Shown piece after piece: positions 59,546-61,324 of a stretch of 64,000 bases of DNA. The position numbers and the translations under genes are program-made. Numbering within the stretch: the first letter of the stretch is position 1; each line of letters begins with the position of its first letter. The stretch covers positions 2,480,001 to 2,544,000 of the forward strand of contig NZ_QTUB01000001.1 of assembly GCF_003386665.1 (NCBI RefSeq), written 5' to 3'. The notes under the pieces were generated by a model. It had not been told where the DNA came from, did no database searches, and saw only the letters and a list, made by a program, of their open reading frames with translations. Source of the stretch: Xenorhabdus cabanillasii. Its GTDB lineage: Bacteria > Pseudomonadota > Gammaproteobacteria > Enterobacterales > Enterobacteriaceae.

Positions 59546-61324
59546 ATGGTGATTTCAACCAAATTTGAGCAAATCGTTGTACGTTTCCCGGAAAATATCG
59601 CGGTGACACAGGGAAACGAAAGCTTAACCTATCGTACCTTGTCAGAGCGCGTTACTGGACTTAGTCATATGCTGCATCATCAGGCTGAGAGTCAGTACGT
59701 CATGACGTTGATGGAAGAGAGTATATCTCTGATAACGGCAGCATTAGCCATCATGAAAGCCGGCAAAGTGTTTGTTCCATTATCCCCTAAGTTACCGGAA
59801 CAACGCCTTGCCACATTATTGGCACAATTCCGTGGTGCAACTATTATCACTTGCCGTCAATGGTTGCCCCTGCTGGAGCATCTGTCAGAAGATTATTCGC
59901 TGGTGCTGGCTGATGAAGTGCAGAAAAACCATTCAATTCCTTCGTTATTCGTGGGAGAGCCGGAGAGTTCACTGCCTGTCAGTAACACTGCCAGTACACA
60001 TAACAACAGTGACATCCATCATAACAAACCGGCATATGTCTACTTTACATCGGGTTCTACCGGGCAACCTAAAGCCATATTAGGGCGCGAAGACAGCTTA
60101 TTGCATTTTATCCACTGGGAAAGTCGTGAACTGAATCTGACACCCGCTGACAAAGTCAGCCAATTGATCAACCAGATGTTCGATCCTTTCCTGCGTGATA
60201 TGTTGCTGCCTTTGCTCAACGGCGCAACACTGTGCATTCCTCCTGCCCACGATATCCGTTATTCGCCGCAGGAATTGCTGAGCTGGATACGTGAACAACA
60301 GATCAGTATTACTCACCTTATTCCTTCTTTGTTTCAGGTTCTGCTGGAGTGTCCGCAATCCAGTGATGACCTGCAATCTTTGAGGTATGCCGTTCTGTCG
60401 GGCGAAATGCTCAAAGGGTCACTGGTAGAGTTGTTTTACCAGCGTCAGTTGCAACAAACCCAATTAATTAATCTGTATGGGACAACTGAAACCACACTGG
60501 CGAGAGTCTACTATCGTGTCACAGAGAAAGATATTCAGCGTGCGCTGATCCCTGCCGGTAAACCCATAGACGATACCACCATTGTTGTCGTTGATGAGCA
60601 GGGTGAAACAGTTCCGGCGGGTGCCGAAGGGGAAGTGTGGATCAGTACTCCCTTTATGAGTGCGGGTTACCTGTCAGCCGGGTCTGAAAATAACTTACGT
60701 TTTATCACCCCGGAAAAAGGGGAACTGGCTGGTCAGCCGGTTTACCGGACAGGTGATTTGGGACGTATTGATGAGCAGGGAGATCTGATCCTGCTTGGCC
60801 GTAATGATTTTCAGATCAAAATCAATGGTCAGCGCCTTGAAACGGCAGAGATAGAAAGTCTGCTTGAACAGCATCCTGCGGTACAACAAGCGATTGTACA
60901 GGCGTTTGAACAGTCGCATCAACCGTCACAAAGTGTGCGGCTGGTGGCATTTATCCGTCTGGCACCGGAAATGACAGTCACGGCAGAAACGTTAGATACC
61001 TATCTGGCCTCCAATCTGGCAGCTGCTATGCGCCCGGCTGATTATCAGTTCTTGTCACTGTTCCCGCTGTTATCCAATGGCAAAATTGACCGCAGAGCAC
61101 TGCAAGCTCCGGCTATCCGCCAGACATACCAAAACAGACAGGATATTGTTATCCCACAGGGAGAACGGGAGACAAAACTGGCAGCTATCTGGCAATCGCT
61201 GTTGCATATCAGACAAATCGGGCGTGACGATAGTTTTTTTTGCACTGGGAGGGGATTCCTTACAGGCAATTCGTATGATTGCACAAGTGCGGGAAAAAAT
61301 GGGGCTGAGTTTGCGTTTTGGTGA
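59546..61324 (+). CDS. fclI: FclI-like NRPS, first part (loading A domain), ends at a frameshift
   Basis: The 592-codon frame begins directly with an adenylation domain: YVYFTSGSTGQPKAI, NLYGTTETTLARV, GEVWISTPFMSAGY, YRTGDLGRIDEQGDLILLGRNDFQIKINGQRLE, LLSNGKIDRRAL. Specificity positions read by eye against GrsA are Asp, Pro, Arg, Leu, Val, Ser, Leu, Leu, Ala, which I cannot match to a known substrate. The frame then enters the carrier domain (GRDDSFF) and is lost at eight T residues (61234-61241), continuing with 28 unrelated residues. Dropping one T gives DDSFFALGGDSLQAIRM, the true carrier motif. There is no N-terminal condensation domain, so this is a starter module. GGAAG lies before the ATG. 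Confidence 0.85.
   Translation: MVISTKFEQIVVRFPENIAVTQGNESLTYRTLSERVTGLSHMLHHQAESQYVMTLMEESISLITAALAIMKAGKVFVPLSPKLPEQRLATLLAQFRGATIITCRQWLPLLEHLSEDYSLVLADEVQKNHSIPSLFVGEPESSLPVSNTASTHNNSDIHHNKPAYVYFTSGSTGQPKAILGREDSLLHFIHWESRELNLTPADKVSQLINQMFDPFLRDMLLPLLNGATLCIPPAHDIRYSPQELLSWIREQQISITHLIPSLFQVLLECPQSSDDLQSLRYAVLSGEMLKGSLVELFYQRQLQQTQLINLYGTTETTLARVYYRVTEKDIQRALIPAGKPIDDTTIVVVDEQGETVPAGAEGEVWISTPFMSAGYLSAGSENNLRFITPEKGELAGQPVYRTGDLGRIDEQGDLILLGRNDFQIKINGQRLETAEIESLLEQHPAVQQAIVQAFEQSHQPSQSVRLVAFIRLAPEMTVTAETLDTYLASNLAAAMRPADYQFLSLFPLLSNGKIDRRALQAPAIRQTYQNRQDIVIPQGERETKLAAIWQSLLHIRQIGRDDSFFCTGRGFLTGNSYDCTSAGKNGAEFAFW

What the first reader, a model, noticed from the sequence alone, without database searches (positions are those of the whole stretch)
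61232..61245. NRPS fclI split by one extra T in an eight-T run
The upstream frame carries a complete A domain into GRDDSFF. The downstream frame resumes exactly with the carrier motif ALGGDSLQAIRM and stays open for 2.7 kb. Seven T residues would give one continuous gene. An eight-T run is a known hot spot for slippage, so this could be a sequencing error, a loss of function, a phase-variable switch, or a site where RNA-polymerase slippage keeps a fraction of product.
Basis: seen in the sequence. Interest (0 to 1): 0.75.

Follow-up and report, generated by a model that had tools for sequence, protein, structure and literature searches.

The report
Likely sequencing error in fabclavine gene
A gene for a large antibiotic-making enzyme looks cut in two at a run of eight Ts, but other, unrelated genes of the same genome are cut in the same manner and the genome was assembled from long reads alone, so this is most likely a sequencing error rather than biology.

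Summary
At an eight-T run (61234-61241) the frame of fclI, the first fabclavine NRPS gene, changes: an upstream ORF (59546-61324) holds a whole A domain, and another frame holds the carrier motif and stays open for 11.4 kb in the whole genome. The genome (one contig, 4,335,622 bp) has exactly the length published for Xenorhabdus cabanillasii DSM17905, assembled from PacBio RSII reads alone with HGAP3. Compared with X. budapestensis over about 400 genes, ten are frame-broken in this genome (fclI, rep, tamA, mgtE, copD, pip, yebF, yfcA, an AmpD-like gene, a ferritin) and one in X. budapestensis. In the nine besides fclI the breaks are single added bases. Both fclI pieces show purifying selection, the rest of the cluster seen is open, mutS and mutL are intact, and a nearly identical FclI, probably from another strain of the species, and seven other genus members have one frame. 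The T run is not conserved as a run. Without reads, a real loss, a phase switch or polymerase slippage is not excluded, but nothing found here favours them. Interest low.

The parts
59546..61324 (+). upstream piece of fclI: 592-aa ORF with a complete A domain, ending in an out-of-frame tail
61234..61241 (+). run of eight Ts at which the frame changes
61322..61324 (+). stop codon of the upstream frame
61077..64000 (+). downstream piece of fclI: carrier motif from 61242, then C and A domains; cut by the window end, open to G000:C1:2552647 (3856 aa from the mechanical start at 61077)
42622..59389 (+). polyamine genes of the fabclavine cluster upstream of fclI (six ORFs; names fclC-fclH inferred from order and domains: KS/AT/KR, KS/FabA, AMT, SDR, reductase, nitrilase), all open
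   Evidence: order from PMC7214866 Figure 1 legend and passages of PMC5709968
15169..15970 (+). second broken gene in the window: TauE/YfcA-like (NCBIfam PRK10621), frame break near 15795-15799; open (267-aa frame) in X. budapestensis and X. indica

Best explanation
The break is a residual single-base length error in a homopolymer of a PacBio-only assembly of Xenorhabdus cabanillasii DSM17905. Shown: the genome has the published length of that assembly, it was made without short reads, and about one gene in forty of those compared is frame-broken in it but open in a close relative. Inferred: that in the living strain fclI is one gene coding for one NRPS of about 4,370 residues, which starts the hexapeptide of fabclavine, so the split changes no biology.
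For: Exact length and contig number: G000 = 4335622 bases in 1 contig, X. cabanillasii DSM17905 = 4,335,622 bp in 1 scaffold, PacBio RSII P6-C4, HGAP3, 87.6x, no Illumina given for this strain (PMC10586111, part 1 of 2 read). Species agrees: PaxA residues 981-1084 are 103/104 identical to PDB 7b2b PaxA, the same construct length as the JM26 construct of PMC7973640 (the link of 7b2b to that paper is my inference). G006 (X. budapestensis) frames in G000 DNA: 390 of 622 full in one frame, 12 split, 1 in both lists; 9 of the 12 breaks lie inside the recognised gene (3 dropped: copC and queG before the likely start, a cupin gene uncertain); a ferritin was found broken in the reverse search, making 10. 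In the nine besides fclI the differences inside the genes are single added bases in G000 (ten bases, in runs of 3 to 9). Reverse: 410 of 1056 full, 4 split, of which 3 are G000's own broken genes and 1 an MgtC-family gene broken in G006. Draft against draft (G006 and G011, fcl region): 0 split beside 50 full, each way. Five broken genes lie within about 4 kb (L163, about 8,994-13,160), which looks like a poor patch. Rate: 11 lesions in 521,437 aligned positions, about 1 per 47 kb; with the same chemistry and assembler another genome needed 205 indel corrections in 7,170,504 bp, about 1 per 35 kb (PMC4832174, passages). Both fclI pieces under purifying selection: dN/dS 0.09-0.11 upstream, 0.14-0.16 downstream. 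P0002, near-identical, is one 4366-aa protein, and 7 of 29 other genus genomes have a close FclI, each in one frame of 4347-4555 aa without stops.
Against: No reads were seen, so the base call itself is untested. The ten broken genes include none that I know to be essential in E. coli (recall), which is also what real decay would give. Single-base differences over all aligned sequence show no excess of longer runs in G000 (155 longer, 149 shorter). Coding-potential scans gave no excess of odd frame switches in G000 over G006 (30 of 142 against 20 of 95; 7 against 4 candidates, which missed fclI itself). P0002 is not the same strain (24 and 6 differences in the aligned parts).
Confidence: 0.88

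Rival explanations
1. Real, recent loss of fclI in DSM17905 by replication slippage in the T run. The strain would make no hexapeptide chain; at most the shortened products that start at FclJ.
For: An eight-base run is a plausible slippage site; eight-base A or T runs do occur inside open frames here (20 A8, 8 T8 in 504 frames of 300 aa or more). Purifying selection on both pieces fits a very recent loss too. Reduced fcl clusters are known: X. bovienii keeps a cryptic fclJ remnant (PMC7214866, part 1 read).
Against: Nine unrelated genes of the same assembly are broken by single bases, so error has a high prior. X. cabanillasii (strain not named in the passages seen) makes full-length fabclavines and the shortened forms were found only in X. 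szentirmaii (PMC7214866). The rest of the cluster that was seen is open.
Confidence: 0.07
2. Phase-variable switch: the run length differs among cells and turns full-length fabclavine on and off.
For: Homopolymers in coding frames are the usual substrate for phase variation, and Xenorhabdus and Photorhabdus are known for phenotypic variants (recall; one search gave a listing only).
Against: The run is interrupted in 2 of the 5 relatives in which the site was recognised (2 of 7 loci gave no motif match). No separate truncated FclI among 8000 scored candidates. Runs of this length are ordinary in open frames of this genome.
Confidence: 0.04
3. Genuine break, with RNA-polymerase slippage at the run keeping some full-length product.
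For: Slippage at A and T runs is established in bacteria, with selection evident at about nine bases in many genomes (PMC1088944, passages).
Against: The run is one shorter than that usual length and is not conserved as a run; nothing marks it as a programmed site. It needs the genomic break to be real first.
Confidence: 0.01

Closest known systems
Residual homopolymer indels in PacBio RSII/HGAP-only bacterial assemblies (Streptomyces albus SM254, PMC4832174; Quiver's weakness at long homopolymers, PMC4853030)
   Same: Same chemistry (P6-C4) and assembler (HGAP3); single-base breaks in runs; similar density, about 1 per 47 kb here against about 1 per 35 kb there.
   Different: There the errors were proved with Illumina reads and lay in G/C runs of a G+C-rich genome; here the breaks are mostly in A/T runs and no reads were seen.
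Fabclavine cluster (fcl) of Xenorhabdus; relatives Xlt of X. innexi and zeamine (zmn)
   Same: Gene order and domains of the polyamine genes, FclI, FclJ, FclK, FclL and two transporter genes.
   Different: Only the frame break in fclI.
Transcriptional slippage at 9A/9T runs (PMC1088944)
   Same: A/T homopolymer between two overlapping frames.
   Different: Eight Ts, run not conserved among relatives.

Membership tests
Residual indel error of a long-read-only assembly | Assembly made from long reads without short-read polishing | tested here: met
   Exact length and contig match to X. cabanillasii DSM17905, PacBio RSII only
Residual indel error of a long-read-only assembly | Same kind of break in unrelated genes of the same genome, rarer in a short-read relative | tested here: met
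   10 broken genes in G000 against 1 in G006 in reciprocal searches (401 and 413 frames placed)
Residual indel error of a long-read-only assembly | Breaks sit in homopolymers | tested here: met
   Of 11 breaks counted, 10 lie in runs of 5 to 9 in G000 and 1 in a run of 3
Residual indel error of a long-read-only assembly | Accurate reads show an open frame | not testable with these tools
   No reads available; public run SRX3886576 is named in PMC10586111
Fabclavine NRPS FclI | Position between the nitrilase gene and fclJ, with a starting A domain followed by T-C-A | tested here: met
Fabclavine NRPS FclI | One open frame of about 4,350-4,550 aa | tested here: not met
   Two frames in this assembly; 7 other genus genomes have one
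Programmed transcriptional slippage site | Run conserved among relatives | tested here: not met
   Continuous in 3, interrupted in 2 of 5 recognised sites; 2 of 7 loci not recognised
Programmed transcriptional slippage site | mRNA with more than one run length | not testable with these tools
   No RNA data
Phase-variable homopolymer | Run length varies within a population | not testable with these tools
   One assembly only

The most novel reading that the evidence does not exclude
The run is a true, reversible switch: DSM17905 populations carry cells with different run lengths in fclI and so alternate between full-length hexapeptide fabclavines and none, or the shortened products that begin at FclJ. 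This would give a genetic basis for variants with and without antibiotic.
Probability: 0.04. Interest if true: 0.6.

Novelty: not a real feature. Interest (0 to 1): 0.08.

Why it matters
As biology it most likely does not. As a warning it does: the only closed genome of X. cabanillasii found here carries frame errors in roughly 1 in 40 of the genes compared, among them two NRPS genes, so searches for natural products and pseudogene counts on it will miss or split real genes. If the break were real, it would change what this strain makes of an antibiotic and insecticidal compound class.

Tried and rejected
Mutator strain: rejected for mutS and mutL, both in one open frame (867 and 669 aa); mutH and others were not searched.

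Coding-potential scans for frame switches did not discriminate: natural gene overlaps dominate, G000 and G006 gave similar proportions (30 of 142 and 20 of 95), one search missed yfcA and one search missed fclI. The tally rests on the protein comparison.

A gene-by-gene DNA comparison listed 16, 20, 7 and 7 rows with early stops in its four directions; most stops fall near the 5' end (start differences) or in antisense frames. Only rep and tamA stood out and were followed. I did not resolve every row (for example L141:2899-3444, L135:9627-9932, L089:5337-5807).

Rows dropped from the tally: copC and queG (break before the likely start) and a cupin gene (two-base difference near the N-terminus, uncertain). 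Against X. indica one more row was seen: the N-terminal part of the minus-strand gene 18743-20902 is out of frame in X. indica, not in G000; a start difference or a lesion there, not resolved.

Two functional proteins from a split gene: unlikely, since the carrier domain itself is cut (PP-binding matched from position 19 of 67 in the downstream piece, none in the upstream piece).

Genome identity by paper search: led nowhere, one search gave PMC10586111; PMC8049438 (passages) was a dead end.

Full report
What was claimed.

The observation. It holds. The run is 61234-61241. The upstream ORF, 59546-61324 (592 aa), has complete AMP-binding and AMP-binding_C matches; the downstream frame carries ALGGDSLQAIRM, then Condensation and AMP-binding. 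The carrier domain is cut: the downstream piece matches PP-binding only from profile position 19 of 67 and the upstream piece has no such match.

Where it is. The window is G000:C1:2480001-2544000 of a single-contig genome of 4,335,622 bp. Six open polyamine genes precede fclI (42622-59389); fclJ (2276 aa), a fclK frame (1512 aa seen in L052; its first part in L051 was not checked), a condensation protein (528 aa) and two ABC transporter genes follow, all open. This is the fabclavine cluster as described in PMC7214866 (part 1 of 4 read, and passages) and PMC5709968 (passages). Gene names by order are inferred.

Relatives. With the upstream piece as query, 30 genus genomes including the own one were searched; 7 of the 29 others hold a close FclI (76-96% identity), each in one frame of 4347-4555 aa with no stop. 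In the named collection the close ones include X. indica, X. budapestensis, X. stockiae, X. innexi, X. hominickii and one MAG. P0002, a 4366-aa protein whose source is not shown, matches the two pieces at 98.9% and 99.2% when they are compared apart; from its identity I take it for another strain of the same species. So intact copies exist.

Which genome. PMC10586111 (part 1 of 2 read) gives X. cabanillasii DSM17905 as one scaffold of 4,335,622 bp, the same to the base, from PacBio RSII P6-C4 reads assembled with HGAP3 at 87.6x; Illumina is described only for other strains of that paper. PaxA residues 981-1084 agree, 103 of 104 identical to PDB 7b2b PaxA.

Is the assembly error-prone? I fetched about 1.38 Mb (32%) of this genome in stretches and 0.80 Mb of the short-contig X. 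budapestensis genome G006 (count). Of 622 G006 frames of 120 aa or more, 390 were found full in one frame of G000 and 12 were split over two (one is in both lists). By family matches and position nine of the 12 are breaks inside the gene: yfcA, fclI, copD, pip, yebF, mgtE, an AmpD-like gene, rep, tamA. Two (copC, queG) lie before the likely start and one (a cupin gene) is uncertain; these three were dropped. The reverse search (410 of 1056 full, 4 split) showed G000's own fclI and yfcA again, a ferritin that is open in G006 (171-aa frame) and broken in G000, and one MgtC-family gene broken in G006. So ten genes are broken here and one there. In the nine besides fclI the differences inside the genes are single added bases in G000, ten in all, in runs of 3 to 9. 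Five of the ten genes lie within about 4 kb (pip, yebF, ferritin, copD and, if counted, the stretch before copC; the four counted genes plus that one). As a control, X. budapestensis and X. indica drafts compared with each other over the fcl region gave no split gene beside 50 full ones in either direction, while both flagged fclI or yfcA in G000. A further NRPS gene outside this comparison (L069:9809-16322, minus strand) is split in the same manner; 7 of 8 relatives at E up to 1e-150 have frames of 2173-2231 aa, the eighth 1428.

Rate. Eleven breaks in 521,437 aligned positions is about 1 per 47 kb. Streptomyces albus SM254, same chemistry and assembler, needed 205 indel corrections with Illumina in 7,170,504 bp, about 1 per 35 kb (PMC4832174, passages). 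[quoted passage not shown] PMC12007338 (passages) describes the same trouble for long-read assemblies in general.

Results against. Over all aligned sequence, single-base differences are balanced (155 longer, 149 shorter in G000), as expected if most are real differences between genes, but so not by themselves a sign of insertion errors. Coding-potential scans showed no excess in G000. None of the ten genes is one I recall as essential in E. coli. X. indica has one N-terminal frame difference of its own. No reads were available.

Was the gene used until lately? dN/dS against X. indica and X. budapestensis is 0.091 and 0.107 for the upstream piece (561 and 552 codons) and 0.140 and 0.158 for the downstream piece (2981 and 2988 codons). 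This fits either an intact gene or a very recent break. mutS and mutL are open, so a mismatch-repair mutator of that kind is unlikely.

Switch or slippage? The site was recognised in 5 of 7 relatives' loci; the T run is continuous in 3 and interrupted by a synonymous codon in 2, so it is not kept as a run. PMC1088944 (passages) puts the length at which selection against A/T runs shows at nine in many genomes. Eight-base runs are ordinary inside open frames here (20 A8 and 8 T8 in 504 long frames). No truncated FclI of its own came up among 8000 scored proteins.

What would follow if it were real. Fabclavine peptides start on FclI; when the chain starts at FclJ a shortened product results (PMC7214866). 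That paper found full-length fabclavines in X. cabanillasii and shortened ones only in X. szentirmaii; the passages seen do not name the X. cabanillasii strain, so this is not proof for DSM17905.

Verdict. Sequencing or assembly error, 0.88; real loss 0.07; phase switch 0.04; slippage-rescued break 0.01.

Noticed in passing
15169-15970 (+): TauE/YfcA-like gene broken by a frame change near 15795-15799; open in X. budapestensis and X. indica.
   Followed up: yes
L163 about 8,994-13,160 (G000:C1 about 2,878,994-2,883,160): Patch of broken genes close together (yebF, pip, ferritin, copD, and a difference before copC), probably a poorly called stretch.
   Followed up: yes
L069:9809-16322 (-): Another NRPS gene split into 526-aa and 1659-aa frames at an A run; 7 of 8 relatives have one frame of 2173-2231 aa.
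   Followed up: partly
L136:7043-9074 and L140:7339-9082: DNA helicase gene rep and outer-membrane assembly gene tamA each split at a long run in this genome.
   Followed up: yes
L168 about 7,192-7,940 (G006): MgtC-family gene frame-broken in the X. budapestensis draft but open in this genome.
   Followed up: partly
L098 about 3196 and L101 about 19324: Two copies of one element with the same frame overlap at an A7 run, perhaps an insertion sequence with programmed frameshifting.
   Followed up: no
41480-42490 (+): 336-aa ORF just before the fabclavine cluster with no NCBIfam match at 1e-5.
   Followed up: no
18743-20902 (-): N-terminal part of this gene is out of frame in X. indica; start difference or lesion there.
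   Followed up: no
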